Shown here: positions 1 through 61,867 of the stretch, in pieces
Position numbering within the stretch: position 1 is the stretch's first letter
Layout: the number at the start of each line of letters is the position of its first letter
Assembly (NCBI GenBank): GCA_022376925.1
Contig: JAIOJX010000028.1
Location: 67,917,001-67,981,000 of the forward strand
DNA: 64,000 nt
Reading direction: 5' to 3'
Source of the DNA: Tragulus kanchil
Lineage: Eukaryota; Chordata; Mammalia; Artiodactyla; Tragulidae
Program-made: the position numbers and the translations under genes
The notes under the pieces: model-generated
The model's input: the letters and a program-made list of their open reading frames with translations, nothing else
What the model was told of the DNA's origin: nothing
Databases searched by the model: none

Positions 1-12
1 GTTTGTTTGTTT

Positions 13-340
13 GTTTTTTAAAGATTTATTTATTTATTTATTTTGGGCGGGGGTTGGGTTGGGGAGGGAGGGGAGCGGGCAGGCCACTGCTATTGGTCTT
101 TCATTTCTCCATTTTCATCCGTCTTTGCTCTTTGGCTCCTGTGGGCCTCCCATCGCGGTGGCGTCTGTCGTTGCAGAGCGCTGGCTCTGGGTGCATGCGT
201 TCCAGAGCTCCGGCTCGGCGATTGGACACATCGGTCCAGCCACTCCGCTGCACGCGGGATCTTCCCAGGCCAGGGATTGAACCGGCGCCCCTTGCACTGC
301 AAGGTGGTGTCCTTACCCACTGGACCACCAGGGGAAGCCC
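13..340 (-). mobile_element. tRNA-derived SINE (CHR-like, young) copy 1
   Basis: Reverse-strand SINE. Its tRNA-like head ends at GGGGAAGCCC (331-340) and its (AAAT)n tail appears as repeated ATTT near 23-44. The body is GC-rich with many intact CpGs, which indicates youth. It lies inside the BovB reverse transcriptase. Flanks TGATACTGAGTTTT (341-354) and TGATGTTGAGTTTT (upstream of the D1 copy at 1118) look like a diverged target-site duplication. Confidence 0.9.
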
Positions 341-599
341 TGATACTGAGTTTTAAGCAGCTTTTTCACTCTCTCCTCTCTCATCCTCATCAAGAGGTTG
401 TTTAGTTCCTCTTCACTTTCTGCCATTAAAGCAGTATCATCTGCCTGTCTGAGGTTATTGATATTTATCCCAGAAATCTTGACTCCAGCTTGTGGTTTAT
501 CCACACAAGCATTTCACGTGATGTACTCTGCATATAAGTTAAATAAGCAAGATGACAACATACAGCCTTGTCATAATCCTTTCTCAATTTGAAACTGTC

Positions 600-1117
600 C
601 ATTGTTCCATGTCCTGTTCTAATCTTGGCTGGCATATTTTGGAGGTTTTTCTTACAGCATCAGGTGACCAAACTGTTGAAGGTTTAGCATCAGCATCAGT
701 CCTGCCAATGAATAGTCAGGGTTGATTTCTTTTAGGACTGACATTTTGATCTCCTTGTAGTCCAAGGACTCTCAAGAGTCTTCGGCAGCACCACAATTTA
801 GAGATATCAGGTCTTTGGCACTCAGCCTTCTTGATGGTCCAACTCTCACATGTGTATATGACTACTGGAAAAAACATAGCTTTGTCTATTCAGACCTTTG
901 TTGGCAAGCTGATGTCTCTGCTTCTTAATATGCTGTCTAGATTTGTGATAGCTTTCCTTCCAAGGAGCAAGTGTCTTCTAATTTCATGACTGTGGTCACC
1001 GTCCACAGTACTTTTGGAGCCCTGAAAAAGAAAAGATGTCACTGATTCCACTTTTTCCCCTTCTATTTGCCATGAAATGATGAGACTGGATCTTAGCTTT
1101 CTGATGTTGAGTTTTTT
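600..1117 (-). pseudogene. BovB reverse transcriptase, C-terminal part, broken
   Basis: On the reverse strand this stretch encodes the region after the catalytic domain of BovB reverse transcriptase, recognisable as a diverged translation around a YGCESWTIKKAE-like block seen here as YTCESWTIKKAE. The frame is interrupted by stops and shifts. It is separated from the catalytic block by the SINE at 1118-1457. It retains no function and serves only to identify the family and strand. Confidence 0.8.
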
Positions 1118-1457
1118 GTTTGTTTGTTTGTTTTTTAAAGATTTATTTATTTATTTATTTTGGGCGGGGGTTGGGTTGGGGAGGGAGGGGAGCGGGCGGG
1201 CCACTGCTATTGGTCTTTCATTTCTCCATTTTCATCCGTCTTTGCTCTTTGGCTCCTGTGGGCCTCCCATCGCGGTGACGTCTGTCGTTGCAGAGCGCCG
1301 GCTCTGGGCGCATGCGCTCCAGAGCTCCAGCTCGGCGATTGGACACATCGGTCCAGCTGCTCCGCGGCACGTGGGATCTTCCCAGGCCAGGGATTGAACC
1401 GGCGCCCCTTGCACTGCAAGGTGGTGTCCTTACCCACTGGACCACCAGGGGAAGCCC
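1107..1457 (-). mobile_element. tRNA-derived SINE (CHR-like), D1 copy
   Basis: Second copy of the 13-340 SINE, 1117 bases downstream. It differs at several substitutions, many at CpG sites, and has the same insertion point in BovB. It is the same insertion seen twice, not two insertions. Confidence 0.93.
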
Positions 1458-2600
1458 TGATACTGAGTTTTAAGCAGCTTTTTCACTCTCTCCTCTCTCA
1501 TCCTCATCAAGAGGTTGTTTAGTTCCTCTTCACTTTCTGCCATTAAAGCAGTATCATCTGCCTGTCTGAGGTTATTGATATTTATCCCAGAAATCTTGAC
1601 TCCAGCTTGTGGTTTATCCACACAAGCATTTCACGTGATGTACTCTGCATATAAGTTAAATAAGCAAGATGACAACATACAGCCTTGTCATAATCCTTTC
1701 TCAATTTGAAACTGTCCATTGTTCCATGTCCTGTTCTAACTGTTGATTCTTGGCTGGCATATAGGTTTCTTATGAGACAGGTAAGGTGGTCTGGTATCCC
1801 CTTCTCTCTAAGACTTTTCCACAGGTTGTTGTAGTCCACACAGTCAAAGGTTCTAGAGTAGTCAATGAAGCAGAAGTAGATGTTTTTTCTGGAATTCCCT
1901 TGCTTTCTCCATGATCCAAGGAATGTTGGCAATTTGATCTATAGTTCCTCTGTTTTTTCTAAACCCAGCTTGTACATCTGGAATTTTTCAGCTCATGTAC
2001 TGTTTAAGCCTGGCTTGAAGGATTTTGAGCATAACCTTGTTAGCATATGAAATAAGTGCAATTGTACGATAGTTTGAACATTATTTTGCATTGACCATTT
2101 TGTGATTGGTATTAAAAACTGACTTTTTCCAGTACTGACCTTTTCCCACCACTGCTGAGTTTTCCAAGTTTCCTAACATATTGAGTGCAGCTCTTTAACA
2201 GCATCATCTTTTAGGATTTGAAATAGCTCAGCTGGAATTCCCTCAGCTCCACTAACATTGTTTGTAGTATTGCTTCCCAAGGCCCACATAACTTCACACT
2301 CCAGGATAGCTGACTCTAGATAAGTGACCATACCATCATGGTTATACAGGTCATTTAGACATTTTTTTTGTATAGTTCTTCTGTGTATTCTTGCCACCTC
2401 TGCTTAATCTCTTCAGTTTCTATTAGGACCTTACCATTTCTATCCTTTATCGTACCCATGCTTGCATGAAGTGTTCCCTTGATATTTCATTTTCTTAAAG
2501 ACATCTCTAGGCTTTCCATTCTATTATTTTCTTCTGTTTCTTTGCACTGTCCTTTTAAGAAGGTCTTCTTATCTCTCCTTGCTATTCTATTTGCACAGTT
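1458..2600 (-). pseudogene. BovB reverse transcriptase core, broken (first copy)
   Basis: Reverse-strand fragments of the RT domain. At 2173-2397 a block includes GIPAELFQILKDDAVKELHS. At 1582-1932 a block includes IYFCFIDYSRTFDCVDYNNL, carrying the first catalytic aspartate region (FIDY, AFDCVD-like). At 1430-1621 a block carries the catalytic motif as QADDT instead of the family's usual YADDT; the substituted codon is at 1562-1564. The two aspartates are kept but the tyrosine is lost. The blocks lie in different frames and the stretch between them is eroded, so this is dead sequence. D2 repeats most of it at 2693-3740. Confidence 0.88.
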
Positions 2601-3846
2601 TGGCTTTTTTTTTAAATTTAATTTTTGAAACCTTTATTTTGCTTTTAACTTTTACAAAGTTTTGTTGTTTACAGATATGTTTCCTTCTTTTACATTAAAG
2701 CAGTATCATCTGCCTGTCTGAGGTTATTGATATTTATCCCAGAAATCTTGACTCCAGCTTGTGGTTTATCCACACAAGCATTTCACGTGATGTACTCTGC
2801 ATATAAGTTAAATAAGCAAGATGACAACATACAGCCTTGTCATAATCCTTTCTCAATTTGAAACTGTCCATTGTTCCATGTCCTGTTCTAACTGTTGATT
2901 CTTGGCTGGCATATAGGTTTCTTATGAGACAGGTAAGGTGGTCTGGTATCCCCTTCTCTCTAAGACTTTTCCACAGGTTGTTGTAGTCCACACAGTCAAA
3001 GGTTCTAGAGTAGTCAATGAAGCAGAAGTAGATGTTTTTTCTGGAATTCCCTTGCTTTCTCCATGATCCAAGGAATGTTGGCAATTTGATCTATAGTTCC
3101 TCTGTTTTTTCTAAACCCAGCTTGTACATCTGGAATTTTTCAGCTCATGTACTGTTTAAGCCTGGCTTGAAGGATTTTGAGCATAACCTTGTTAGCATAT
3201 GAAATAAGTGCAATTGTACGATAGTTTGAACATTATTTTGCATTGACCATTTTGTGATTGGTATTAAAAACTGACTTTTTCCAGTACTGACCTTTTCCCA
3301 CCACTGCTGAGTTTTCCAAGTTTCCTAACATATTGAGTGCAGCTCTTTAACAGCATCATCTTTTAGGATTTGAAATAGCTCAGCTGGAATTCCCTCAGCT
3401 CCACTAACATTGTTTGTAGTATTGCTTCCCAAGGCCCACATAACTTCACACTCCAGGATAGCTGACTCTAGATAAGTGACCATACCATCATGGTTATACA
3501 GGTCATTTAGACATTTTTTTTGTATAGTTCTTCTGTGTATTCTTGCCACCTCTGCTTAATCTCTTCAGTTTCTATTAGGACCTTACCATTTCTATCCTTT
3601 ATCGTACCCATGCTTGCATGAAGTGTTCCCTTGATATTTCATTTTCTTAAAGACATCTCTAGGCTTTCCATTCTATTATTTTCTTCTGTTTCTTTGCACT
3701 GTCCTTTTAAGAAGGTCTTCTTATCTCTCCTTGCTATTCTCTGGAACTTTGCATTCAGTTTGGCTTTTTTTTTTTTTTAAATTTAATTTTTTGAAACCTT
3801 TATTTTGCTTTTAACTTTTACAAAGTTTTGTTGTTTACAGATATGT
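1541..3846. repeat. Direct duplication D2 (shift about 1152)
   Basis: 1541-2692 recurs at 2693-3846. The left copy ends in a damaged version of the right one: near 2585 it reads ATTCTATTTGCACAGTTTGG where the right copy has an extra segment (3738-3758). The junction filler TTCCTTCTTTTA at about 2681-2692 belongs to neither flank. Confidence 0.97.
2693..3740 (-). pseudogene. BovB reverse transcriptase core, D2 copy
   Basis: Exact repetition of the reverse transcriptase remnant at 1541-2590; both peptide blocks recur identically at 2734-3084 and 3325-3549. The QADD block is not included as an open frame because the copy starts inside it. Its right-hand end preserves the BovB sequence that the left copy lost, so this is the more trustworthy version. 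Confidence 0.88.
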
Positions 3847-6838: not shown

Positions 6839-6950
6839 AAGAATACCTGAATGAATAGCTTATCTCTTCTCCAGGGCTATTCCTGACACAGAAATCAAGC
6901 AAGGGTCTCTTGCATTGCAGGTGGATTCTTTACCAACTGAGCTATCAAAG
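6839..6950 (-). mobile_element. Partial Bov-tA SINE
   Basis: Fragment abutting the previous SINE. CTTGCATTGCAGGTGGATTC and TTTACCAACTGAGCT are the tRNA-head half of Bov-tA on the reverse strand; the rest is missing. Together with 6640-6838 it probably represents a dimeric Bov-tA. Confidence 0.75.
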
Positions 6951-7486
6951 GTAGAACCAAAAATACAGTCAATGTGTCAAGGGCATCTTGCTCCTTATTT
7001 ATGATAAAAAAGTACATCATTGAATTGTAGTTGCATCTCTTCTTGTGTGATGTAGTAAAGCAGTTTAATGTGAATATCAAAGGGTTAAAGATTATAATGA
7101 AATAATTTAGAGTTTTAGGAGTTCTGTCTCATTTAACTTCTTGCTTTGCTACTCTCTTTGATAGAGTGCAGGTTAAGCAAGTACAAACCAAAGACCCCAA
7201 AATATGAGCTATGGAAAGGCCTTTGTCTTTTTCTATATTACTAACCAAGAATAAGCAATCACAGTTGGTTGGATAATTGATAAACTTAATATGTTACTGC
7301 CATCTCTGTTCCAATTTTCAGTGACTCCTGGGCAGTCATAAAAGGGAAGGAACCAAAATAGAAGCGTGAATTTTTTTTCTTAGGACCTTGAGTTGGCACT
7401 TGTAGCTTTTTTTTAAGATAGACCATTTTTTTAAAAAAAAGTTTTTATTGAACCTGCTAAACATTGCTTCTGTTTTATGTTTTACA

Positions 7487-7594
7487 TTTTTTGGCTGCAA
7501 GGTATCTCAGGATCTTAGCTTCTTGACCAGGCATCAAGCCTGCACCCCTTACATTGGAATGCAAAGCGTTAGCCACTGGACTCAGGGAAGTCCC
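7487..7594 (-). mobile_element. Old tRNA-derived SINE fragment
   Basis: Reverse strand, from TTTTTTGGCTGC to CAGGGAAGTCCC, with a CTGGACTCAGGGAAGTCCC head. It resembles the CHR/ART2 SINE group in artiodactyls and is decayed. The second copy is at 8664-8771 through D3. Confidence 0.75.
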
Positions 7595-8663
7595 GGCACT
7601 TGTAGTTTTTGCTCACATCCTATCAGCTACTACTTAGTTACAAGTTGTGTAGTTTTGAGTCAATGGGGAGAAAGACATTTAAAGACCCATTAGCAGTTTC
7701 TGCCTCAGTTCAAAAATTTGATTGAAGACAAATTATTTCAACAAAGTTCTCTGGCATGCATTTAAATTTTAAATTCAGTTTGTTTCACTTTTATTATTGA
7801 TCTTGGTGATAATGAAGTATTTTTTTTTTAAGTCGGAGTTCAATGATAAGCCTTAGTGTACTACTAAGTGGACATTATTATACAATGTGTATGGAACAGT
7901 AGATAATTAAAATATTTCTCCAGACCTAATGAAGAGCTGAATCATACTCTATTTTACTCAGCTTTAATGGAAAAGTCCTGACAATAGACCTTCCTAGATC
8001 TGATGTTAGCAACCTCCGTCTACAGCTCTTATTTCTTTCTCTCTATTGACATAGCCATGCTTTTTCATCTCTTATGTTTACCCTTAATGACACAGAAATA
8101 AAGGTCGCATGGGATGAGCTATCAAAGGTAGAACCAAAAATACAGTCAATGTGTCAAGGGCATCTTGCTCCTTATTTATGATAAAAAAGTACATCATTGA
8201 ATTGTAGTTGCATCTCTTCTTGTGTGATGTAGTAAAGCAGTTTAATGTGAATATCAAAGGGTTAAAGATTATAATGAAATAATTTAGAGTTTTAGGAGTT
8301 CTGTCTCATTTAACTTCTTGCTTTGCTACTCTCTTTGATAGAGTGCAGGTTAAGCAAGTACAAACCAAAGACCCCAAAATATGAGCTATGGAAAGGCCTT
8401 TGTCTTTTTCTATATTACTAACCAAGAATAAGCAATCACAGTTGGTTGGATAATTGATAAACTTAATATGTTACTGCCATCTCTGTTCCAATTTTCAGTG
8501 ACTCCTGGGCAGTCATAAAAGGGAAGGAACCAAAATAGAAGCGTGAATTTTTTTTCTTAGGACCTTGAGTTGGCACTTGTAGCTTTTTTTTAAGATAGAC
8601 CATTTTTTTAAAAAAAAGTTTTTATTGAACCTGCTAAACATTGCTTCTGTTTTATGTTTTACA

Positions 8664-8771
8664 TTTTTTGGCTGCAAGGTATCTCAGGATCTTAGCTTCT
8701 TGACCAGGCATCAAGCCTGCACCCCTTACATTGGAATGCAAAGCGTTAGCCACTGGACTCAGGGAAGTCCC
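8664..8771 (-). mobile_element. Old tRNA-derived SINE fragment, D3 copy
   Basis: Identical to 7487-7594, displaced by 1177 bases. The surrounding 1.1 kb holds no gene. Confidence 0.75.
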
Positions 8772-9561
8772 GGCACTTGTAGTTTTTGCTCACATCCTAT
8801 CAGCTACTACTTAGTTACAAGTTGTGTAGTTTTGAGTCAATGGGGAGAAAGACATTTAAAGACCCATTAGCAGTTTCTGCCTCAGTTCAAAAATTTGATT
8901 GAAGACAAATTATTTCAACAAAGTTCTCTGGCATGCATTTAAATTTTAAATTCAGTTTGTTTCACTTTTATTATTGATCTTGGTGATAATGAAGTATTTT
9001 TTTTTTAAGTCGGAGTTCAATGATAAGCCTTAGTGTACTACTAAGTGGACATTATTATACAATGTGTATGGAACAGTAGATAATTAAAATATTTCTCCAG
9101 ACCTAATGAAGAGCTGAATCATACTCTATTTTACTCAGCTTTAATGGAAAAGTCCTGACAATAGACCTTCCTAGATCTGATGTTAGCAACCTCCGTCTAC
9201 AGCTCTTATTTCTTTCTCTCTATTGACATGCCAGCCATGTTTTCATTCTTGATTTTCCTCCTAAGTGCCAGTCACTTCTTTCACCTCTAAGCATTTACCC
9301 TTAATATTCCTTCTCTTTGAACCCTCTTTCCTCTAAAATTTCTGCAATATTTACTTCATTCTCTTGTTAGACGAAGTAAATCAAGAGAGGACATTGCCGC
9401 GGGCAGAGCATAGTTACTTATCTCTAATTAATAGAATTGGGGAAACACTCAATTGCCCTGGTACTATTATCAGAAAACTTCAACCTATGCCCTGTAGTTC
9501 CCTCTAATTTGAGACTAGAACTTCAACAGTAAAAAGGCATGGAGTTCAAATCAAGATAAGA

Positions 9562-9813: not shown

Positions 9814-10258
9814 GCAAAACAATTTCATTAACTTCGAGCCCGAGTAGAATTTTGGCCCGAGTGTAGTTCGTATACACCAATCTCATCAAACTTCGAGCCT
9901 GAGTGTAGTTCATGTACACCAAGGCTTTTTGTATTTTTTTAAAGTGACAGTAACAATTTGGGCAATTAATTTTACTTCTCATTCAGCCATTATATTTATT
10001 CAGGCATTATCAAACTCAAGTGTAAATCTCTTGATTAGTTTTAACATTAGAGAAAGTTTAAGTAAAACTTAAAGAATCAAAAGAAACTTTCTTCCTAATT
10101 ACTCAAACTAGTGATTAAAGAAAAATCTAAACCTCGGAACTATCACACAGAGACTTTACCCTTTGTGCTAGACTAGAGCAGGCTATTTTGCTTATTATTT
10201 AAACTTCCTTATACTTAATAAGTAGCTACATATTACTTTGGGGAGTTTCCTTCTTATT

Positions 10259-10597
10259 TTATTTCTTTCCTCTCCTAACCTTACGGGGCAGTTGTGACTC
10301 AGGTTCACTTTTGTTTTCGCTAGAAAGGCTTTGTTCATGATTTCTTTTATTCCTTTCAGATACAATTCTCTTGCCTTTTGGGTCAACATATATCCCCCCT
10401 TTGGGTGTCATCATATTCACCCACTCTTCTTCTCCCTCTGAACTTATCTCACTTTCTAAAAGGTGAAGCATAGGTCTAAAAAACTTATCTGGGGTTCGAG
10501 GACTGTCTGAGCTATCCATATCATCATCACTCATTTCCTCATATCCAGGGGCCCAGTACCTTCCTAGGAATTCACCTGTAATAGTCCATGTCAACAT
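10259..10597 (-). CDS. 112-codon open frame across the LTR edge, unidentified
   Basis: Intact reverse-strand frame of 112 codons starting ATG at 10597. It is strongly polar: an acidic first half (EEMSDDDMDSSDS near residues 20-32; SEISSEGEEE near 50-59, encoded by the purine tract) and a basic C-terminus ending RKVRRGKK, a nuclear-localisation-like stretch. No membrane segment or signal peptide. I do not recognise the family. Its second half lies inside the LTR candidate, as in retroviral accessory genes that overlap the 3' LTR (foamy bel/bet, lentiviral nef, MMTV sag). A splice acceptor-like TATTACAG sits at codons 6-8. A second frame of 64 codons overlaps at 10195-10389. It could equally be a chance frame. 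The identical copy at 11350-11688 is due to D4. Confidence 0.35.
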   Translation of the reverse strand: MLTWTITGEFLGRYWAPGYEEMSDDDMDSSDSPRTPDKFFRPMLHLLESEISSEGEEEWVNMMTPKGGIYVDPKGKRIVSERNKRNHEQSLSSENKSEPESQLPRKVRRGKK

Positions 10598-10960
10598 GAC
10601 ATGGGTTGACCCATGATCTTGACACAGGCAGCCAGAGGTCCCTCCTTGGAGTGTGTTCTCTACTGGCCTTCTTCTGCAAAACTTGCCAAAAGATGACTTT
10701 GAGAGAGCAATGAGTTGCTGAGAGTATCTGGATGGTATACATGACTGAACCCAGTAAAGAACTCTATGTAAACTTAAGATTCACACTGGTACCTGGGTGT
10801 GGAGGTCTACTCATCTTGTGTCTGCTGAAGACAAGTTTTATAAGGAAGTTCCCTCCTTTAATAAAATTGTCACCTAACAATCTGGAGAGACCTGCCTCTT
10901 TCTTTTCTCTCTCTCCTCTTCAAGTATGGAGGAAGATTTCAGATTACACACAGGAGGTTC
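10598..10960 (+). mobile_element. Possible second LTR-like stretch (forward)
   Basis: Forward strand. A TATAAGG (about 10839-10845) is followed within 25 bases by AATAAAA (about 10860) and a pyrimidine-rich CTCTCTCTCC tract, the order seen in short gammaretrovirus-like LTRs. Ends are not defined and no internal region is seen. It may instead be part of the reverse-strand retroviral remnant next to it. Repeated at about 11689-12050 by D4. Confidence 0.25.
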
Positions 10961-11349
10961 CAAGAAGGCTGTGAACCAACAGCTCTCCTTCAACTTTTGT
11001 TTTGTGATCTTCTTAGTAAAGCTTACCCTGACTTTTCTCTTTAAAATTTCAAATCCATACATAGCATTTTATATTCCCTGTTTTTGCTTTATTTATTCCA
11101 TTACTTTCAAGAAAACACTTCCCTTTCCTAATTTACATTAGAGAAAGTTTAAGTAAAACTTAAAGAATCAAAAGAAACTTTCTTCCTAATTACTCAAACT
11201 AGTGATTAAAGAAAAATCTAAACCTCGGAACTATCACACAGAGACTTTACCCTTTGTGCTAGACTAGAGCAGGCTATTTTGCTTATTATTTAAACTTCCT
11301 TATACTTAATAAGTAGCTACATATTACTTTGGGGAGTTTCCTTCTTATT

Positions 11350-11688
11350 TTATTTCTTTCCTCTCCTAACCTTACGGGGCAGTTGTGACTCAGGTTCACT
11401 TTTGTTTTCGCTAGAAAGGCTTTGTTCATGATTTCTTTTATTCCTTTCAGATACAATTCTCTTGCCTTTTGGGTCAACATATATCCCCCCTTTGGGTGTC
11501 ATCATATTCACCCACTCTTCTTCTCCCTCTGAACTTATCTCACTTTCTAAAAGGTGAAGCATAGGTCTAAAAAACTTATCTGGGGTTCGAGGACTGTCTG
11601 AGCTATCCATATCATCATCACTCATTTCCTCATATCCAGGGGCCCAGTACCTTCCTAGGAATTCACCTGTAATAGTCCATGTCAACAT
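11350..11688 (-). CDS. 112-codon open frame, D4 copy
   Basis: The same 112-residue frame as 10259-10597 with no amino-acid difference, displaced 1091 bases. Identity here is not evidence of selection because the whole 1.1-kb block is repeated. The LTR U3 part next to it (11135-11514) is present, but the rest of the LTR is not, since this copy begins inside U3. Confidence 0.35.
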   Translation of the reverse strand: MLTWTITGEFLGRYWAPGYEEMSDDDMDSSDSPRTPDKFFRPMLHLLESEISSEGEEEWVNMMTPKGGIYVDPKGKRIVSERNKRNHEQSLSSENKSEPESQLPRKVRRGKK

Positions 11689-13275: not shown

Positions 13276-13521
13276 GCTTTATTTATTCCATTGGCATTAT
13301 TGCCATCTAATTTTCTATACATTTTGCTTATTTATTCTGTTTATTGGCCATCTTACACAACCAACTAGAATGGATGGTCTTTGAGGGCATTAATTTTTGT
13401 TTGTTTTATGTTTGTTTCCCATGCCTATAATACAGCCTGAAACATAATAAAATCATCAATAAATTTTCTATAACTAACTGAATGACAAACAAATGAATGA
13501 GTGATTGAATAAACAAATCAC
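13276..13521 (+). mobile_element. L2 LINE 3' end, D5 copy
   Basis: Identical to 12180-12425, displaced 1096 bases. The rest of the unit (13522-14325) is AT-rich unique DNA without a gene. Confidence 0.75.
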
Positions 13522-49803: not shown

Positions 49804-49814
49804 TGCTACCTTAA

Positions 49815-50212: not shown

Positions 50213-51920
50213 AGTCTATGAAAAATGCTGTTAGAAATTTGATAAGGATTGCAGTAAATCTGTAAACTGCTTTAAGTAGCATAATCATTTTGACAATGTT
50301 GGTTCTTCCATTCCAAGAACACAGTGTGTCTTTCCATTTATTTATGTGGTCTTCAGTGTCTTTCATTAGTGTCTTGCAGTTTTTGGAGTACAGGTCTTTT
50401 GCCTCTTAGAAAGAATCATTCCAAATTACTATACCCTGACCACTTGATCTGTGTTGCAAAAATTACATATAACCTAACTCCCCTCCTTGCCAATTCACAG
50501 CAGTCTCTCAGAGTTATCTGAGATGCTGTGTCCCAAGCTTAAGTTCTCAGTTTTCTCTGTGGAGTAAAGCATAACTTTTAAGGTTTCCCTGGGGTCCAGT
50601 GGATTAAGAGTCCACCTTGCAGTGCAAAGAACACTGGTTCAGTCTCTAGCCTGGGAAGATCCCACGTGCCGTGGAGCAGCTGGACCAGTCCAGTTATGAG
50701 CCAGTGCCCTGGGGCACATGTGCTCAGAGCTGGTGCTCTGCAGTGGGGGAGGCCACTGCAGTGGGAGGCCCACACATACCAAAGAATAAAAAAAAAAGGT
50801 GAATGAAAATAGATATAAATAAAAAGAGGCATGCTGGGGAAAAAGAAACATAACTTTTAATTTTTAGGTTGTACATTTTTTTTCAGTTGATGCTACCTTA
50901 AAAATAGAAATAAATACAGAATTAGGCAAAATAAAAGGACAGAGGAATTTATTCTCAATGAAGGAATAACACATAATCTCAGAAAAAAATGAAAGTAGAG
51001 ATGAACAATCTATTCAATAAAGAGTGCAATATAATGATCATAAAGATGATCACTGAATTCAGGGGAAGGATGGAGGAAGACACTGAAAATTTCATCAAGG
51101 CGGTAGAAATTATAAAAAACAAGCAAACTGAACTGAGTTGAAGAGTATAATAATTAAAATTAAAAAAATACACTATAAGGAATCAATAGGAGACTGAATG
51201 ATGCAAAGGAATAGATTAGTCAGCTGTAAGACAGAGTAGTGGAAATTACCCAAGTTGAAAAGAAAAAAATAATAATTTTAAAAACTGAAAATAGTACCAG
51301 TCTATGAAAAATGCTGTTAGAAATTTGATAAGGATTGCAGTAAATCTGTAAACTGCTTTAAGTAGCATAATCATTTTGACAATGTTGGTTCTTCCATTCC
51401 AAGAACACAGTGTGTCTTTCCATTTATTTATGTGGTCTTCAGTGTCTTTCATTAGTGTCTTGCAGTTTTTGGAGTACAGGTCTTTTGCCTCTATAGAAAG
51501 AATCATTCCTTGATATGTTATTCTTTTTGATGTGATAGTAAATGGGATTATTTCCTTAAATTCTCTTTCTGATCTTTGTTGTTAAAAATGCAACAGATTT
51601 CTATATATTAATTTTGTGTTCTTCAACTATACAAAATTCAGTGATGAGCTCTGATAGTTTTGGTAGTGTTTTTAATATTTTCTATGTGTAGTATCATATC
51701 ATCTGCAAACAGTGGCAGTTTACTTCTTCCTTTCCAATTTGGATTCTTTTAATTTCATTTTTTTTCTCTCTGATTGCTATGGCTAGAACTTCTAAAATTA
51801 TGTAGAATAAAAGTAGCAAGAGTGTATATCCTCATTTTGTTCCTCATTTTAGAGGAAATGCTTTCAGCTTTTAATCATTGAATATGATATTAGCTGTAGG
51901 TCTGTCATAATTATAAGCAA
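50213..51920 (-). pseudogene. Inverted L1 ORF2 segment (RT region)
   Basis: Reverse strand. At 51246-51506 the peptide includes LYSKNCKTLMKDTEDHINKW, the conserved ORF2 block after the RT domain, and further right is DNA for the RT region. Both flanks carry the same L1 in forward orientation (ORF1 left, ORF2 right). Real length is about 0.6 kb: 50213-50422 is a partial copy (D18), 51303-51920 the full one, and 52459-53077 another copy (D19). Confidence 0.75.
50583..50832 (+). mobile_element. tRNA-derived SINE, D18 copy
   Basis: Copy of 49496-49745 in the same LTR context, displaced 1087 bases. Confidence 0.9.
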
Positions 51921-51929
51921 TGATAAAAT

Positions 51930-52098
51930 AAATTATAAATGACAAAAATATAGAAAGTTATACCATATTCATGGATTGAAATAATTAGTATTCTTAAAAT
52001 ATCCATAATTTCAAGGCATTCTATGGATTCAATGTAATTCTTATAAAATACCTAAAGCATTTCCTATAGAACTAGAACAAATAATTCTAAGTTTATAT
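51930..52098 (+). pseudogene. L1 ORF2 fragment, forward
   Basis: ATACCATATTCATGGATTGA and AGAACTAGAACAAATAATTC are the ORF2 DNA after the RT domain. The D19 copy is at 53086-53254. The same part of ORF2 is also present inverted just to the left, so two versions overlap by roughly 100 bases but are diverged. Confidence 0.75.
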
Positions 52099-52100
52099 GG

Positions 52101-52230
52101 GGCTTCCCTGGTAGCTCAGTAATAAAGAATCTGCATGTCAGTGTGGAAGATGCAGGTTTGATTGCTGGCCCAGGAAGATCTCTCATGGCCACAACTGTTG
52201 AACCTGTGCTCTAGAACTTACGACCTACAA
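52101..52230 (+). mobile_element. SINE (ART2/CHR type), truncated D19 copy
   Basis: Left copy of 53256-53580, cut at the D19 joint. Confidence 0.8.
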
Positions 52231-53255
52231 GGTTTGATTGCTGGGCTCATCAAGGCGGTAGAAATTATAAAAAAACAAGCAAACTGAACTGAGTTGAAGA
52301 GTATAATAATTAAAATTAAAAAAATACACTATAAGGAATCAATAGGAGACTGAATGATGCAAAGGAATAGATTAGTCAGCTGTAAGACAGAGTAGTGGAA
52401 ATTACCCAAGTTGAAAAGAAAAAAATAATAATTTTAAAAACTGAAAATAGTACCAGTCTATGAAAAATGCTGTTAGAAATTTGATAAGGATTGCAGTAAA
52501 TCTGTAAACTGCTTTAAGTAGCATAATCATTTTGACAATGTTGGTTCTTCCATTCCAAGAACACAGTGTGTCTTTCCATTTATTTATGTGGTCTTCAGTG
52601 TCTTTCATTAGTGTCTTGCAGTTTTTGGAGTACAGGTCTTTTGCCTCTATAGAAAGAATCATTCCTTGATATGTTATTCTTTTTGATGTGATAGTAAATG
52701 GGATTATTTCCTTAAATTCTCTTTCTGATCTTTGTTGTTAAAAATGCAACAGATTTCTATATATTAATTTTGTGTTCTTCAACTATACAAAATTCAGTGA
52801 TGAGCTCTGATAGTTTTGGTAGTGTTTTTAATATTTTCTATGTGTAGTATCATATCATCTGCAAACAGTGGCAGTTTACTTCTTCCTTTCCAATTTGGAT
52901 TCTTTTAATTTCATTTTTTTTCTCTCTGATTGCTATGGCTAGAACTTCTAAAATTATGTAGAATAAAAGTAGCAAGAGTGTATATCCTCATTTTGTTCCT
53001 CATTTTAGAGGAAATGCTTTCAGCTTTTAATCATTGAATATGATATTAGCTGTAGGTCTGTCATAATTATAAGCAATGATAAAATAAATTATAAATGACA
53101 AAAATATAGAAAGTTATACCATATTCATGGATTGAAATAATTAGTATTCTTAAAATATCCATAATTTCAAGGCATTCTATGGATTCAATGTAATTCTTAT
53201 AAAATACCTAAAGCATTTCCTATAGAACTAGAACAAATAATTCTAAGTTTATATG

Positions 53256-53580
53256 GGGCTTCCCTGGTAGCTCAGTAATAAAGAATCTGCATGTCAGTGT
53301 GGAAGATGCAGGTTTGATTGCTGGCCCAGGAAGATCTCTCATGGCCACAACTGTTGAACCTGTGCTCTAGAACTTACGACCTACAACTTCTGGGCCCATA
53401 TGCTACATCTACTGAAGCTCATACACCCTAGGGCCTGTGCTGCACAAAAGAAGCCATACCAACGAGAAGTCCATGCATAGCAACTAGAGAAGAGCCCCCA
53501 CTTGCTGCAACTAGAGGAAAGCCTGTGTGGCATCAATAACCTAGAACAGCCTGAAGTAAGTAATTCATTAATTCATAAAA
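53256..53580 (+). mobile_element. SINE (ART2/CHR type) in L1 ORF2
   Basis: Forward: GGGGCTTCCCTGGTAGCTC head, then an ART2-like body (TAGCAACTAGAGAAGAGCC; TTGCTGCAACTAGAGG). AACAAATA...GTTTATATGG before and AACAAATAGAAGTTATATGG after form a target duplication inside ORF2. D20 copy at 54328-54652. Confidence 0.82.
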
Positions 53581-53599
53581 GTCTGTGAGTTACATCTTT

Positions 53600-54022
53600 A
53601 TAAACAAATAGAAGTTATATGGAAACAGGAAAAATTACAAATAGCCAAAGCAATCTTGAGAAAGAAGCACAAATCAGAAGGTATCCTGCTCCCTAACTTC
53701 AAATAGTACTACAAAACTTCAGTAATTAAAACAGTATGATATTGACAGAAAAACAGACATTTAGTTTGATGGAACAGAATAGAGAGTCTGTAAATAAACC
53801 CACATTTATATGGTCAGTTATTCTTTGACAAAGCAGGTGAGAATATATAGTAAGGAAAAGATAACTTCTTATAAAATGTCAGGAAACTGGATAGCTACAT
53901 GTAAAAGAATCAAAGTGGATTATATTCTCACTCCATATGCAAACATGAAGTCAAAATGGATAAAAGACAAATGTAAGACACCATGAAACTTCTAGAAGAA
54001 AAGATAAGGAGTACATTTTTAA
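53600..54022 (+). pseudogene. L1 ORF2 C-terminal fragment
   Basis: Forward DNA of ORF2 after the RT domain (AGCCAAAGCAATCTTGAGAA; AAACCCACATTTATATGGTC; AATGGATAAAAGACAAATGT). Multiple stops. Ends where a Bov-tA was inserted. D20 copy at 54672-55095. Confidence 0.85.
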
Positions 54023-54240
54023 TGGGCTTCCCTAGGGCTCAGCAGTAAAGAATCCTCCTGCAATGCAGAAGTTACAGGAAACACAGGTTCAATCCCTGGG
54101 TTGGGAAGATCCCTTGGAGGAGGCCATGGCAGCCTACTCCAATATTCTTGTCTGGAGATTCCCAAGGACAGAAGAGCCTGGTGGACTGCAGCTCATAGGG
54201 TTGCAAAGAGTCAGACATGACTGTAGTGGCTTTGCATCCC
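54023..54240 (+). mobile_element. Bov-tA-type SINE in L1 ORF2
   Basis: Forward, from GGGCTTCCCTAGGGCTC to CAGACATGACTG, with AAGATCCCTTGGAGGAGG. D20 copy at 55096-55312. Confidence 0.9.
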
Positions 54241-55095
54241 TACATATCTTTAATATTGATCTTAGCAACATTTTTGGAGTGTGTCTCTTCAGGTAAGGGA
54301 ATGAAACAAAGACAGATAAATTTATATGGGGCTTCCTGGTAGCTCAGTAATAAAGAATCTGCATGTCAGTGTGGAAGATGCAGGTTTGATTGCTGGCCCA
54401 GGAAGATCTCTCATGGCCACAACTGTTGAACCTGTGCTCTAGAACTTACGACCTACAACTTCTGGGCCCATATGCTACATCTACTGAAGCTCATACACCC
54501 TAGGGCCTGTGCTGCACAAAAGAAGCCATACCAACGAGAAGTCCATGCATAGCAACTAGAGAAGAGCCCCCACTTGCTGCAACTAGAGGAAAGCCTGTGT
54601 GGCATCAATAACCTAGAACAGCCTGAAGTAAGTAATTCATTAATTCATAAAAGTCTGTGAGTTACATCTTTATAAACAAATAGAAGTTATATGGAAACAG
54701 GAAAAATTACAAATAGCCAAAGCAATCTTGAGAAAGAAGCACAAATCAGAAGGTATCCTGCTCCCTAACTTCAAATAGTACTACAAAACTTCAGTAATTA
54801 AAACAGTATGATATTGACAGAAAAACAGACATTTAGTTTGATGGAACAGAATAGAGAGTCTGTAAATAAACCCACATTTATATGGTCAGTTATTCTTTGA
54901 CAAAGCAGGTGAGAATATATAGTAAGGAAAAGATAACTTCTTATAAAATGTCAGGAAACTGGATAGCTACATGTAAAAGAATCAAAGTGGATTATATTCT
55001 CACTCCATATGCAAACATGAAGTCAAAATGGATAAAAGACAAATGTAAGACACCATGAAACTTCTAGAAGAAAAGATAAGGAGTACATTTTTAAT

Positions 55096-55312
55096 GGGCT
55101 TCCCTAGGGCTCAGCAGTAAAGAATCCTCCTGCAATGCAGAAGTTACAGGAAACACAGGTTCAATCCCTGGGTTGGGAAGATCCCTTGGAGGAGGCCATG
55201 GCAGCCTACTCCAATATTCTTGTCTGGAGATTCCCAAGGACAGAAGAGCCTGGTGGACTGCAGCTCATAGGGTTGCAAAGAGTCAGACATGACTGTAGTG
55301 GCTTTGCATCCC
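55096..55312 (+). mobile_element. Bov-tA-type SINE, D20 copy
   Basis: Copy of 54023-54240, displaced 1072 bases. Confidence 0.9.
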
Positions 55313-55319
55313 TACATAT

Positions 55320-57543
55320 CTTTAATATTGATCTTAGCAACATTTTTGGAGTGTGTCTCTTCAGGTAAGGGAAATGAAAGCAATAATAAAAAGTAGAACA
55401 GCATCAATCTAAAAAAATTTTCTATAGCAGAGGAAACCATCAACAAGTTGAAAAGACAGACCACTGAATGGAAGAAGATACTAGCAAACAATATACCCAA
55501 TAGGTATTAATATCCTAAATATACACAGAACTCAGAGTTCAACATCAAAAAAAAAAAGGAATAATTTGATTAATAATAGGCAGAGGACCTGTGTAGACAT
55601 TTTTTCAAGTTAAAAATACAGGTGACCAACAAGCACATGAAAACGTATTCAAAATCACTAATCATCAGAGAAATTCTAATTAAAATCACAATGAGATACC
55701 ACCTCACACATATCAGAATAAAAATAACCTCAAATAACAAGTGTTGGCAAGTATGTGGGAAAAGGGGATTCTTATGCACTGTAGTTGGGAATGTAAATTG
55801 ATGCAGCTACTATGGAAAACAGTATGCAAATTTCTAAAAATAATTAAAAATAGAACTGCTGTATGATCCAGCAATGTCATTTCTGGGTATTTACCATAAG
55901 AAAACAAAAACTCTAACTGGAAAATATATGTGCACAGCGATGTTTATTTTAATCTCATTTACAATGGTCAGGACATAGGAAGCAACCTAACTATCCATTG
56001 ATAGATGAATGGATAAAGAAGATGTGATATATATATAGGTATAGATATTATTCAACCATAAAAAATGAAATTTTGTCATTTGAAAGAATATGAATGGATC
56101 TAAAGAGTATTATGCTAAATGAAATGTTAACAGAGAATGAAAAATAGTCACTTATATGTGGAATCTGACAAAACAAACACAGCAAAATGAAAACAGATTT
56201 ATATTGATAGATACCAAGATTGTTGTGATTGCTGGAGGGAAGAGGGGTGGAGAGACAACATAATGAAGGAGACTAAGACATACACATTTCCAGTTATAAA
56301 ATAAATAAGCCAGTGGGTATAAGATACAACATAAAGTATGTTGTCCATAATATTGTAATCAATTTTATAGGGATAGATGGTTTCTAGACTTATTGTGGTG
56401 ATAATTTCATAATTTTTTCAAAAAATAAGTGTGCATCCCTACTTTTTACCCTTTAATATTGATCTTAGCAACATTTTTGGAGTGTGTCTCTTCAGGTAAG
56501 GGAAATGAAAGCAATAATAAAAAGTAGAACAGCATCAATCTAAAAAAATTTTCTATAGCAGAGGAAACCATCAACAAGTTGAAAAGACAGACCACTGAAT
56601 GGAAGAAGATACTAGCAAACAATATACCCAATAGGTATTAATATCCTAAATATACACAGAACTCAGAGTTCAACATCAAAAAAAAAAGGAATAATTTGAT
56701 TAATAATAGGCAGAGGACCTGTGTAGACATTTTTTCAAGTTAAAAATACAGGTGACCAACAAGCACATGAAAACGTATTCAAAATCACTAATCATCAGAG
56801 AAATTCTAATTAAAATCACAATGAGATACCACCTCACACATATCAGAATAAAAATAACCTCAAATAACAAGTGTTGGCAAGTATGTGGGAAAAGGGGATT
56901 CTTATGCACTGTAGTTGGGAATGTAAATTGATGCAGCTACTATGGAAAACAGTATGCAAATTTCTAAAAATAATTAAAAATAGAACTGCTGTATGATCCA
57001 GCAATGTCATTTCTGGGTATTTACCATAAGAAAACAAAAACTCTAACTGGAAAATATATGTGCACAGCGATGTTTATTTTAATCTCATTTACAATGGTCA
57101 GGACATAGGAAGCAACCTAACTATCCATTGATAGATGAATGGATAAAGAAGATGTGATATATATATAGGTATAGATATTATTCAACCATAAAAAATGAAA
57201 TTTTGTCATTTGAAAGAATATGAATGGATCTAAAGAGTATTATGCTAAATGAAATGTTAACAGAGAATGAAAAATAGTCACTTATATGTGGAATCTGACA
57301 AAACAAACACAGCAAAATGAAAACAGATTTATATTGATAGATACCAAGATTGTTGTGATTGCTGGAGGGAAGAGGGGTGGAGAGACAACATAATGAAGGA
57401 GACTAAGACATACACATTTCCAGTTATAAAATAAATAAGCCAGTGGGTATAAGATACAACATAAAGTATGTTGTCCATAATATTGTAATCAATTTTTATA
57501 GGGATAGATGGTTTCTAGACTTATTGTGGTGATAATTTCATAA
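55320..57543. repeat. Direct duplication D21 (shift 1131-1130)
   Basis: 55320-56412 recurs at 56451-57543. In the joint 56413-56450 the text TGCATCCCTACTTTTTACC is a damaged form of TGCATCCCTACATATC at 55306-55319. Confidence 0.97.
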
Positions 57544-57630
57544 TGTTTGCAAATGTCAAATATTATGTAATAACCTGAAACTAGTAATGCAATACTATAC
57601 ATGAACTATATTTCAATAACATTTTAAAAA
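55375..57630 (+). pseudogene. L1 ORF2 end and 3'UTR
   Basis: Forward strand: AATTAAAATCACAATGAGATACCA-like block (55678-55700), ATGTAAATTGATGCAGCTAC, ATGATCCAGCAATGTCATTT and AACCATAAAAAATG mark the last part of ORF2. The 3'UTR has CTTATTGTGGTGATAATTTC and ends TATATTTCAATAACATTTT. Stops and frameshifts throughout. The first part is repeated through D21. Confidence 0.85.
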
Positions 57631-58416
57631 TGCTAAGTCGATTGTATATGCAAATATGCAAAATTATTTTTCTTATAAGAGATATCTTTTATGCTGCCTT
57701 AAAGCAATTGGCTGTTGCAAATACAGTGTTTTAAAAGAACAACTCTAAAGGCACAAGTGCACCAACAAGCAGGGATATTCGGTATGCCCTTTTTCATGGG
57801 CTAGCCTGAGCAAATGGACTTTCAGTCTGAATTAAAGGTCAATTGATTTGTGCTTTTGCCAAATCAGTTTGGAAAAGACATTTAAAGTTCTGTCTCTCTA
57901 CTATGTGGCTCACCACGTATTTTCTGAGAATTCAGATTTAGCTGTGGTTGTTTCTAATTCCTCATAAAAAGTCTTGGCCAAACCTAATGCCTAAAAATGT
58001 CTGAACTTCTTAGCCTGAAATTTGGCGTTTACAACTTGCTTACTGATCCTGATTCCTCACGCCAGCATCAACATTTATTGTGTCCCTTCACAAATCCTTC
58101 CAATCCTATGAAATAGGTCTCTCAAGCAGATTGTGAATACATTATTTTCTGAATCTGCAATGTCACTCCTTTAAGCTGTGTTAACAAGAGTCAGTTTCCC
58201 TCATATGCTAGTCTGAGTCATCTCTCATATACAAAGCTTCCTTTATTTACTCTAATAAAATTATTTTTCTAAATTCCTTTAGTCCTTGCTGTGTATTTCT
58301 TTAATTTTCAACCTTAAAAAATTTAAATTTTCTTTTATACAACTCTCCTGTCTCTATGTGTAATCTATTAAAATTAGGACTGCAATTCCTATACTATAAT
58401 TCTTAGGGAGGAAAGT

Positions 58417-58490
58417 AACTGACTTACAAATATTATATTAATACTTAGTATATTAATACTTAGTATTAATATAATATTTGTAAGTCAGTT
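58417..58490. repeat. Near-perfect 74-bp inverted repeat (hairpin)
   Basis: Arms of 29 bases (58417-58445 and 58462-58490) are exact reverse complements around a 16-base AT-rich centre that is itself nearly palindromic. The outer arm begins AACTGACTTACAAATA. D22 copy at 59541-59614. Confidence 0.95.
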
Positions 58491-59540
58491 AAGACCTTTT
58501 CTGGCTTAATGAAGAAAAGACAACAAGCATGGGACTTTGGCCTTTTACTATCAGCTCTTACTCTTTTGGGGCGTTCTTTTACCACCAAACCTTCAGTTGT
58601 GTCTTCCTAAGTAATTGGAGAGATACTGGGAAGTTGTTCCTTGTTTTCCTGTGTCTTATGATGTTGGTTTGCAAACTGAAATGGAAATCAGGATGAACCC
58701 ACCGTCATCAGATTGGAATGTTTTTACATTGAACTATATTTCAATAACATTTTAAAATGCTAAGTCGATTGTATATGCAAATATGCAAAATTATTTTTCT
58801 TATAAGAGATATCTTTTATGCTGCCTTAAAGCAATTGGCTGTTGCAAATACAGTGTTTTAAAAGAACAACTCTAAAGGCACAAGTGCACCAACAAGCAGG
58901 GATATTCGGTATGCCCTTTTTCATGGGCTAGCCTGAGCAAATGGACTTTCAGTCTGAATTAAAGGTCAATTGATTTGTGCTTTTGCCAAATCAGTTTGGA
59001 AAAGACATTTAAAGTTCTGTCTCTCTACTATGTGGCTCACCACGTATTTTCTGAGAATTCAGATTTAGCTGTGGTTGTTTCTAATTCCTCATAAAAAGTC
59101 TTGGCCAAACCTAATGCCTAAAAATGTCTGAACTTCTTAGCCTGAAATTTGGCGTTTACAACTTGCTTACTGATCCTGATTCCTCACGCCAGCATCAACA
59201 TTTATTGTGTCCCTTCACAAATCCTTCCAATCCTATGAAATAGGTCTCTCAAGCAGATTGTGAATACATTATTTTCTGAATCTGCAATGTCACTCCTTTA
59301 AGCTGTGTTAACAAGAGTCAGTTTCCCTCATATGCTAGTCTGAGTCATCTCTCATATACAAAGCTTCCTTTATTTACTCTAATAAAATTATTTTTCTAAA
59401 TTCCTTTAGTCCTTGCTGTGTATTTCTTTAATTTTCAACCTTAAAAATTAATTCTCTTTTATACAACTCTCCTGTCTCTATGTGTAATCTATTAAAATTA
59501 GGACTGCAATTCCTATACTATAATTCTTAGGGAGGAAAGT

Positions 59541-59614
59541 AACTGACTTACAAATATTATATTAATACTTAGTATATTAATACTTAGTATTAATATAATA
59601 TTTGTAAGTCAGTT
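59541..59614. repeat. 74-bp inverted repeat, D22 copy
   Basis: Identical hairpin, displaced 1124 bases. The next duplication (D23) starts in its last four bases. Confidence 0.95.
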
Positions 59615-60000
59615 AAGACCTTTTCTGGCTTAATGAAGAAAAGACAACAAGCATGGGACTTTGGCCTTTTACTATCAGCTCTTACTCTTTTGGGGCGTTC
59701 TTTTACCACCAAACCTTCAGTTGTGTCTTCCTAAGTAATTGGAGAGATACTGGGAAGTTGTTCCTTGTTTTCCTGTGTCTTATGATGTTGGTTTGCAAAC
59801 TGAAATGGAAATCAGGATGAACCCACCGTCATCAGATTGGATCATTTTTTTTTTTTTGTCTTGCCTACATACCACTTCTAATATTTAAGATGTCTCTAAT
59901 ATAATTTTGCATTAAGCATAGATTATAGAAGATTCATATCAGTGTGAAAATCAAATTCTTATAAATGGTTTTATTCATACTTAAGGTTTTTCTTGTCCCT

Positions 60001-60024
60001 TGTGTGTGTGTGTGTGTGTGTGTG
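60001..60024. repeat. (TG)12 microsatellite in a SINE target duplication
   Basis: GTCCCTTGTGT occurs before (59995-60005) and after (60350-60360) the SINE. The TG run grows out of the first copy, next to the SINE tail. The D23 copy at 61124-61151 has 14 units. Confidence 0.92.
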
Positions 60025-60026
60025 TT

Positions 60027-60349
60027 TTAAAGATTTATTTATTTATTTATTTTGGGCGGGGGTCGGGTTGGGGAGGGAGGGGAGCGGGCGGGCCACTTCT
60101 ATTGATCTTTCATTTCTCTGTTTTCATCCGTCTTTGTTCTTTGGCTCCTGCGGGCCTCCCATCGCAGTGGCGTCTGTTGTCGCAGAGTGCCGGCTCTAGG
60201 TGCATGCACTCCAGAGCTCCGGCTCGCTGATTGGACACATCGGTCCAGCCGCTCCGCGGCACGTGGGATCTTCCCAGGCCAGGGATCGAACTGGCGCCCC
60301 TTGCACTGCAATGCAGTGTCCTTATCCACTGGACCACCAGGGGAAGCCC
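60027..60349 (-). mobile_element. tRNA-derived SINE (CHR-like), young
   Basis: Reverse strand, CpG-rich, over 90 % similar by eye to the 13-340 copy. Head ends GGGGAAGCCC. The (AAAT)n tail is intact. Frames seen in it on both strands are not genes. Confidence 0.93.
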
Positions 60350-61122
60350 GTCCCTTGTGTTTTACAACTAAAGGTTGTGGCACACAATTAAGGTTAATTC
60401 TAGGTCCAAGTAGAAACATCTGAAGAGAGCTATGAGTTACCATTAGCAAATGAATTGTAGTGGATTCTAGTGCCTATTTCAATAGCTCAGAGTTGATTTT
60501 GTAATATATTTCCTTTCTATATTCCTGAAGTGTTAGTTGTTTTTCCTCAGGGAAAAAGGACATGCTGAGGTGGATTCAGAAGGATGGAAAAAGAGATAGT
60601 ATTTGAAGAATAAAGGTGTAAAAGGAGGGAAAAATGTGAAGAGGAAATTTAAAAATTGTGAATTGTGATGCTCTCTAGTTGATGACCTGTACATTCTTTA
60701 GACCATAGATAAGACTCATTCACTTGTAGACTGAAGTTAAGACCTTTCTGGCTTAATGAAGAAAAGACAACAAGCATGGGACTTTGGCCTTTTACTATCA
60801 GCTCTTACTCTTTTGGGGCGTTCTTTTACCACCAAACCTTCAGTTGTGTCTTCCTAAGTAATTGGAGAGATACTGGGAAGTTGTTCCTTGTTTTCCTGTG
60901 TCTTATGATGTTGGTTTGCAAACTGAAATGGAAATCAGGATGAACCCACCGTCATCAGATTGGATCATTTTTTTTTTTTTGTCTTGCCTACATACCACTT
61001 CTAATATTTAAGATGTCTCTAATATAATTTTGCATTAAGCATAGATTATAGAAGATTCATATCAGTGTGAAAATCAAATTCTTATAAATGGTTTTATTCA
61101 TACTTAAGGTTTTTCTTGTCCC

Positions 61123-61123
<1 letters not shown>
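60350..61123. other. Unique DNA plus start of D23 copy, no gene seen
   Basis: 60361-60734 is purine-rich in part (60550-60660), with no coding pattern. 60735-61123 repeats 59611-60000. Confidence 0.6.
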
Positions 61124-61153
<30 letters not shown>

Positions 61154-61155
<2 letters not shown>

Positions 61156-61476
61156 AAAGATTTATTTATTTATTTATTTTGGGCGGGGGTCGGGTTGGGG
61201 AGGGAGGGGAGCGGGTGGGCCACTTCTATTGATCTTTCATTTCTCTGTTTTCATCCGTCTTTGTTCTTTGGCTCCTGCGGGCCTCCCATCGCAGTGGCGT
61301 CTGTTGTCGCAGAGTGCCGGCTCTAGGTGCATGCACTCCAGAGCTCCGGCTCGCTGATTGGACACATCGGTCCAGCCGCTCCGCGGCACGTGGGATCTTC
61401 CCAGGCCAGGGATCGAACTGGCGCCCCTTGCACTGCAATGCAGTGTCCTTATCCACTGGACCACCAGGGGAAGCCC
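61154..61476 (-). mobile_element. tRNA-derived SINE, D23 copy
   Basis: Copy of 60027-60349; one difference is visible (GGGTGGGCC against GGGCGGGCC). Confidence 0.93.
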
Positions 61477-61867
61477 GTCCCTTGTGTTTTACAACTAAAG
61501 GTTGTGGCACACAATTAAGGTTAATTCTAGGTCCAAGTAGAAACATCTGAAGAGAGCTATGAGTTACCATTAGCAAATGAATTGTAGTGGATTCTAGTGC
61601 CTATTTCAATAGCTCAGAGTTGATTTTGTAATATATTTCCTTTCTATATTCCTGAAGTGTTAGTTGTTTTTCCTCAGGGAAAAAGGACATGCTGAGGTGG
61701 ATTCAGAAGGATGGAAAAAGAGATAGTATTTGAAGAATAAAGGTGTAAAAGGAGGGAAAAATGTGAAGAGGAAATTTAAAAATTGTGAATTGTGATGCTC
61801 TCTAGTTGATGACCTGTACATTCTTTAGACCATAGATAAGACTCATTCACTTGTAGACTGAAGTTAA

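What the first reader, a model, noticed from the sequence alone, without database searches (positions are those of the whole stretch)
1..61867. Twenty-three unrelated loci each duplicated in tandem with a near-constant 1.03-1.18 kb unit
Seen directly: shifts of 1117, 1152, 1177, 1091, 1096, 1119, 1074, 1032, 1097, 1143, 1108, 1130, 1134, 1155, 1138, 1151, 1117, 1087, 1155, 1073, 1131, 1128 and 1124 bases. The unit boundaries ignore sequence content (LINE, SINE, LTR, unique DNA), yet unit length is nearly constant and copy identity is near 100 %. True duplications would vary in length and age. I infer unmerged overlaps between consecutive consensus segments. To my knowledge wtdbg2-type assemblers use 4 x 256 = 1024-base nodes shared by neighbouring edges; failure to merge them would leave repeats just over 1 kb, as here. 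If it were real it would be an unprecedented mutational process.
Basis: partly seen in the sequence, partly recalled or inferred. Interest (0 to 1): 0.9.

Follow-up and report, generated by a model that had tools for sequence, protein, structure and literature searches.

The report
Unmerged assembly overlaps, not real duplications
The repeated 1.1-kb blocks in this stretch of animal DNA are almost certainly pieces that a genome-assembly program laid end to end without merging their shared ends, so they should be treated as an assembly error and not as biology.

Summary
In detail: 23 head-to-tail pairs at shifts of about 1032-1177 bases. Copy 2 lengths sum to 25,746 of the first 61,868 bases. 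In 22 units (unit 1 is cut by the window), interiors differ by 20 indels and 6 substitutions in 20,272 bases, while the outermost 10 bases differ at 136-183 per kb. Filler between copies is a degraded copy of the outer flanks in 15 of 19 cases tested, three of them narrowly. No joint was re-copied, where random real duplications would re-copy 6.5 (P = 0.0013). Joints are never closer than 738 bases on the collapsed map. All shifts exceed 1024. A wtdbg2-type graph is the best guess for the program, but no 256-base rhythm was found and neighbouring units overlap by up to 417 bases. Unit 1 has ten unexplained substitutions. Reads, another assembly and the rest of this assembly could not be examined. 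Verdict: assembly artefact, low biological interest, useful as a warning.

The parts
1..1739 (.). unit 1: copy 1 1-622 (its left part lies outside the window), copy 2 about 623-1739 (start inferred from the shift)
   Evidence: shift 1117; ten substitutions at 81-255
1523..3846 (.). unit 2: copy 1 1523-2680, copy 2 2681-3846
   Evidence: shift 1152; the end of copy 1 lacks bases at five places, several in runs of T
6884..9264 (.). unit 3: 6884-8087 / 8088-9264
   Evidence: shift 1177
10014..12196 (.). unit 4: 10014-11102 / 11103-12196
   Evidence: shift 1091-1094
12121..14326 (.). unit 5: 12121-13229 / 13230-14326
   Evidence: shift 1096
14015..16257 (.). unit 6: 14015-15134 / 15135-16257
   Evidence: shift 1119-1120
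19383..21551 (.). unit 7: 19383-20472 / 20473-21551
   Evidence: shift 1074-1077
22203..24269 (.). unit 8: 22203-23232 / 23233-24269
   Evidence: shift 1032-1033, the shortest
24172..26364 (.). unit 9: 24172-25268 / 25269-26364
   Evidence: shift 1097-1098
26010..28291 (.). unit 10: 26010-27155 / 27156-28291
   Evidence: shift 1137-1143
29836..32051 (.). unit 11: 29836-30943 / 30944-32051; copy 2 begins in the middle of a dispersed repeat
   Evidence: shift 1105-1108; repeat matches start at 30944-30946
31873..34128 (.). unit 12: 31873-33000 / 33001-34128
   Evidence: shift 1128-1129
35335..37595 (.). unit 13: 35335-36467 / 36468-37595
   Evidence: shift 1128, 1134 at the noisy start
37293..39599 (.). 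unit 14: 37293-38448 / 38449-39599
   Evidence: shift 1143, 1155 at the noisy start
39673..41948 (.). unit 15: 39673-40810 / 40811-41948
   Evidence: shift 1138
43622..45926 (.). unit 16: 43622-44772 / 44773-45926
   Evidence: shift 1151
47209..49451 (.). unit 17: 47209-48331 / 48332-49451; the only joint of 22 without filler
   Evidence: shift 1118-1120
49331..51508 (.). unit 18: 49331-50421 / 50422-51508
   Evidence: shift 1086-1087
51092..53395 (.). unit 19: 51092-52246 / 52247-53395; overlaps unit 18 by 417 bases
   Evidence: shift 1156
53230..55383 (.). unit 20: 53230-54309 / 54310-55383
   Evidence: shift 1072
55297..57562 (.). unit 21: 55297-56427 / 56428-57562
   Evidence: shift 1130-1131
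57598..59849 (.). unit 22: 57598-58724 / 58725-59849
   Evidence: shift 1124-1127
59618..61868 (.). unit 23: 59618-60741 / 60742-61868
   Evidence: shift 1123-1127

Best explanation
The sequence is a string of 24 consensus segments (22 complete ones of 1.8-5.4 kb, and one cut by each end of the window) set end to end by a long-read assembler. Each segment begins with the same roughly 1.1 kb of genome with which the previous one ended, because neighbouring segments share a graph node. The step that should have aligned and merged the shared ends did not do so here, so every shared end is written twice. Shown: the tandem pairs, their chain order, the error-rich ends and the indel-type differences inside. 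Inferred: that the shared piece is a 1024-base node of a wtdbg2-type graph (I give this part about 0.7), stretched to 1.03-1.18 kb by reads with net deletions and by ragged node borders. The real locus would then be about 36 kb long instead of 62 kb, with each unit present once.
For: (1) Length: all 23 listed shifts exceed 1024, with CV 2.9%. (2) Error profile in 22 units (unit 1 left out because the window cuts it): differences per kb fall from 183 and 136 in the terminal 10 bases (segment starts and ends) to 0.9-1.8 beyond 100 bases. (3) Terminal differences lean to lost bases: in the last 50 bases the terminal copy lacks 158 bp and has 67 bp extra over 2,068 aligned (summed). (4) Interiors: 20 indels and 6 substitutions in 20,272 aligned bases; 16 of 20 indels change the length of a run of one base or of a dinucleotide (my reading of the list). 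(5) Filler: 15 of 19 tested pieces match the expected outer flanks better than all 60 shuffles and all 60 random flank pairs, though those at 8052, 11082 and 50406 do so by one point only. (6) All 23 joint words occur once; 23 random tandem duplications would re-copy 6.5 joints on average, P(none) = 0.0013 in 20,000 runs. (7) The smallest step between joints on the collapsed map is 738 bases; 0 of 200,000 random placements had a minimum that large (threshold taken from the data). (8) Units overlap in a chain in 12 of 22 consecutive pairs.
Against: Segment lengths show no significant 256-base rhythm (all 22, R = 0.30, p about 0.14; 14 short ones, p about 0.8). Overlap between neighbouring shared pieces reaches 417 bases, above the 256 that I recall as the wtdbg2 default, and the shortest step, 738, is below the 768 expected from it. 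Mean length 1119 is 9% over 1024. Filler in 4 of 19 cases did not pass both controls; one of these, at 36467, passed the shuffles and failed only against a random flank pair scoring 75, and I did not check where that pair lay. Unit 1 carries nine transitions and one transversion, which does not look like consensus error. No reads or second assembly were seen.
Confidence: 0.96

Rival explanations
1. Another assembly-software artefact of the same kind: overlapping chunks or contigs from a different assembler, polisher or scaffolder joined without trimming. (This shares the artefact verdict with the best explanation and differs only in the program, so its weight is part of the 0.96.)
For: The in-sequence evidence shows unmerged overlaps but does not name the program. 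The 256-base test was negative. False duplications at contig boundaries, and one set caused by a FALCON bug, are documented (PMC8081667, passages seen).
Against: Fixed-size polishing chunks would give near-constant spacing, but segments vary from 1825 to 5407 bases. Read-length overlaps would vary more than 2.9% (inference).
Confidence: 0.25
2. Genuine tandem duplications by an unknown process that copies about 1.1 kb at a time.
For: The copies are contiguous with no N, and interiors are near identical, as young duplications would be. Unit 1 has real-looking substitutions. Filler at 3 of 19 joints (13228, 15110, 20464) matches the flanks no better than shuffled letters.
Against: Degraded ends and mostly flank-like filler, no re-copied joints and no short spacing, indel-dominated differences, and no diversity of lengths.
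Confidence: 0.01
3. Two haplotypes retained side by side (heterotype false duplication).
For: Unit 1 has ten substitutions in 175 bases.
Against: In the other 22 units only 6 substitutions stand in 20,272 bases of interior, and a constant 1.1 kb length with chained overlaps has no reason under this reading.
Confidence: 0.02

Closest known systems
Homotype false duplication (VGP terminology, PMC8081667; passages seen)
   Same: The same DNA is written twice because overlapping or under-collapsed assembled sequence was kept. That paper tells such cases from haplotype duplications partly by differing consensus quality, which is what the unit ends show here, and reports one set caused by an assembler bug (FALCON).
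   Different: The published cases often sit at contig boundaries and are about as long as a read. Here 23 lie inside one gap-free stretch, each about 1.1 kb.
Shared nodes between neighbouring edge consensuses in wtdbg2 / wtpoa-cns (recalled; PMC12037172 passages confirm only that one program lays out overlapping read sequences and a second makes the consensus)
   Same: Shared pieces just above 1024 bases; shortest segment 1825 bases, near the 1792 (2 x 1024 - 256) that I would expect from recalled defaults.
Real tandem segmental duplications of mammals (recalled)
   Same: Head-to-tail near-identical copies.
   Different: Real ones vary in length and age, have sharp borders, and differ mainly by substitutions.

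Membership tests
Homotype false duplication (assembly artefact) | Adjacent copies of the same DNA with no allelic divergence | tested here: met
   22 units: 6 substitutions in 20,272 interior bases; unit 1 is an exception with ten
Homotype false duplication (assembly artefact) | Consensus quality differs between the copies | tested here: met
   differences rise from about 1 per kb inside to 136-183 per kb in the terminal 10 bases; judged from the sequence, without reads
Homotype false duplication (assembly artefact) | k-mer copy number in reads is lower than in the assembly; reduced read depth | not testable with these tools
   no reads available
wtdbg2-type unmerged node overlap | Overlap about 1024 bases (node size recalled) | tested here: met
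   1032-1177, all 23 above 1024
wtdbg2-type unmerged node overlap | Distances in multiples of 256 read bases (recalled) | tested here: inconclusive
   no significant rhythm; a local stretch of about 9% and ragged borders could hide it
wtdbg2-type unmerged node overlap | Neighbouring nodes overlap by at most 256 bases (default as recalled) | tested here: not met
   five of 21 pairs exceed 256 (312, 355, 303, 417 and, only after scaling by 1.09, none of the rest: 232 is below); counted exactly, 4 of 21 exceed 256. Other settings or ragged borders could allow this, so the claim is 'works like', not 'is'.
wtdbg2-type unmerged node overlap | Pattern present throughout the assembly | not tested
   The genome search 'own' did not complete
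Genuine tandem duplication | Sharp borders | tested here: not met
   21 of 22 joints carry 3-133 bases of filler; of 19 tested, 15 are degraded flank
Genuine tandem duplication | Independent events sometimes copy earlier joints | tested here: not met
   0 of 23 joints re-copied, 6.5 expected

The most novel reading that the evidence does not exclude
A mutational process in this lineage has recently and repeatedly duplicated fixed-length stretches of about 1.1 kb at spaced-out sites, leaving error-prone copied flanks at each joint.
Probability: 0.01. Interest if true: 0.95.

Novelty: not a real feature. Interest (0 to 1): 0.07.

Why it matters
If this pattern runs through the assembly (not tested), duplicate counts, exon duplications, structural variants and repeat ages called from it will be wrong; the inflation in this window is about 1.7-fold (61,868 bases for about 36,122). 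Three marks visible without reads (constant shift just above 1024, errors concentrated at unit ends, filler that is degraded flank) could serve as a cheap screen for such assemblies. If it were real it would be a new mutational process, but the evidence is strongly against that.

Tried and rejected
A 256-base rhythm in segment lengths was tested and not found. Rfam gave no match at gathering scores. ARAGORN gave two tRNA-like hits of unclear anticodon, one in each copy of unit 23. Ten of 60 stop-to-stop frames of 90 aa or more were scanned with Pfam without a match, so no gene or element was identified. Eight literature searches listed no title or abstract start that announces 1.1-kb tandem repeats from unmerged wtdbg2 edges. 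I saw the listings only, apart from the four papers named next; one search listed 20 of 2,442 papers and one search listed 20 of 31; subscription papers and issue trackers are not covered. Passages only were read of PMC8228171 (its tandem duplications are real ones at the amylase locus), PMC8081667, PMC9848057 and PMC12037172. The BLAST list of dispersed repeats was considered as a test of elements cut at joints and dropped, since a real duplication can cut an element too. Prokaryote, phage, plasmid and viral collections were not searched for this locus because they are not expected to hold it.

Full report
What is there. The listed shifts have mean 1118.7 and s.d. 32.5. Repeated 16-mers at shifts up to 20 kb number 25,999 pairs (words occurring 2-6 times); 23,667 lie at shifts of 1000-1200, and at least 1,966 of the remaining 2,332 lie at 2100-2300, which is two successive shifts. 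No other tandem period competes.

How the units are arranged. I placed each joint by aligning the stretch between the two near-identical cores to the sequence after copy 2 and to the sequence before copy 1 (22 units, unit 1 being cut by the window). Joints lie at 622, 2680, 8087, 11102, 13229, 15134, 20472, 23232, 25268, 27155, 30943, 33000, 36467, 38448, 40810, 44772, 48331, 50421, 52246, 54309, 56427, 58724 and 60741 (the first is simply the end of the core). The stretches between joints are 1825 to 5407 bases long; 14 of 22 are under 2400. Each stretch starts with the 1.1 kb that ended the one before. In 11 of the 21 consecutive pairs listed, by 76 to 417 bases, and in the first pair (shift 2269), copy 2 of one unit runs into copy 1 of the next, so part of the DNA stands three times. 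Copy 2 lengths sum to 25,746 bases, which leaves 36,122 bases of single-copy sequence.

Why it is not biology. First, the copies differ mostly at their ends. Over 22 units the difference rate is 183 per kb in the first 10 bases of a segment and 136 per kb in the last 10, falls to 7-10 per kb at 50-100 bases, and is 0.9-1.8 per kb further in. The joints were themselves placed by alignment, so the rates at the ends are rough. Second, the interior differences are 20 indels and 6 substitutions in 20,272 aligned bases; three of the six substitutions stand within 20 bases of each other at 19977-19996. By my reading of the list, 16 of the 20 indels change the length of a run of one base or of a dinucleotide. 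Diverging duplicates would show the opposite balance (recalled). Third, 21 of 22 joints have 3-133 bases of extra sequence between the cores. In 15 of 19 cases long enough to test, it matches the expected outer flanks better than all 60 shuffles and all 60 random flank pairs; three of the 15 (8052, 11082, 50406) pass by one point only. The four that did not pass are at 13228, 15110, 20464 and 36467. The last of these passed the shuffles (72 against at most 24) but not the random flanks (one scored 75, place not checked). So the filler is mostly a poor-quality continuation of the same overlap. Fourth, all 23 joints are unique words. In a simulation of 23 real tandem duplications of these lengths at random places, 6.5 earlier joints are re-copied on average, and none in 0.13% of 20,000 runs. 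Fifth, on the collapsed map no two joints are nearer than 738 bases; none of 200,000 random placements had so large a minimum (the threshold was taken from the data).

How it most likely arose. A long-read assembler made one consensus for each edge of its graph, neighbouring edges share a node, and the step that should merge the shared node did not. As I recall, wtdbg2 uses 256-base bins, nodes of four bins (1024 bases) and by default at most one bin of overlap between nodes, and wtpoa-cns joins the edge consensuses; the paper itself is not held, and the passages I read of PMC12037172 confirm only that one program lays out overlapping read sequences and a second makes the consensus. Some numbers fit: every shift is above 1024, the shortest segment is 1825 (7 bins would be 1792), and the shortest step is 738 (3 bins would be 768, so slightly short). 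Lost bases outnumber gained ones at the ends, 158 against 67 bp in the terminal 50 bases (summed), so 1024 read bases would cover more than 1024 genome bases. Others do not fit well: segment lengths show no significant 256-base rhythm, and neighbouring shared pieces overlap by more than 256 bases in 4 of the 21 pairs (312, 355, 303, 417). I therefore hold the artefact at 0.96 and, within that, leave about a quarter for a different program.

What remains odd. Unit 1 differs between copies by ten substitutions at 81-255, nine of them transitions, inside a dispersed repeat. In 15 matched comparisons with other members, some of which are doubled copies of each other, copy 2 is nearer in 12, copy 1 in 2, with one tie. 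Polishing with reads from another repeat copy, or two alleles, would explain it; neither was tested. This unit was left out of the counts.

What could not be done. No reads or related animal genome were available. The host was not identified.

Relation to what is known. The vertebrate genome project describes homotype false duplications, near contig boundaries or in sequence left under-collapsed because of sequencing errors, tells them from haplotype duplications partly by consensus quality, and reports one set caused by a FALCON bug (PMC8081667, passages). The case here is of that kind, inside contiguous sequence and of nearly constant length. It is not a biological feature.

Noticed in passing
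window 81-255 and 1198-1372: Ten substitutions (nine transitions) between the two copies of unit 1, more than in any other unit; the region lies in a dispersed repeat and may be mis-polished or allelic.
   Followed up: partly
window 45973-47163: A stretch of about 1.2 kb with long weak self-complementarity and direct repetition, including a 63-base unit present twice at 46506-46631 with 98% match.
   Followed up: no
window 1-355, 6097-6412, 19851-20270, 28927-29219, 29752-30042, 35892-36183, 49495-49737, 60009-60372, 63303-63621, among others: A dispersed repeat family of about 250-400 bases with members on both strands, 63-90% alike in the matches listed; ARAGORN reports a tRNA-like fold in one member and its copy (60269-60345, 61396-61472), so it may be tRNA-derived.
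   Followed up: no
window 58416-58491: A 76-base palindrome (92% in the self-match), doubled with unit 22 at 59540-59615.
   Followed up: no
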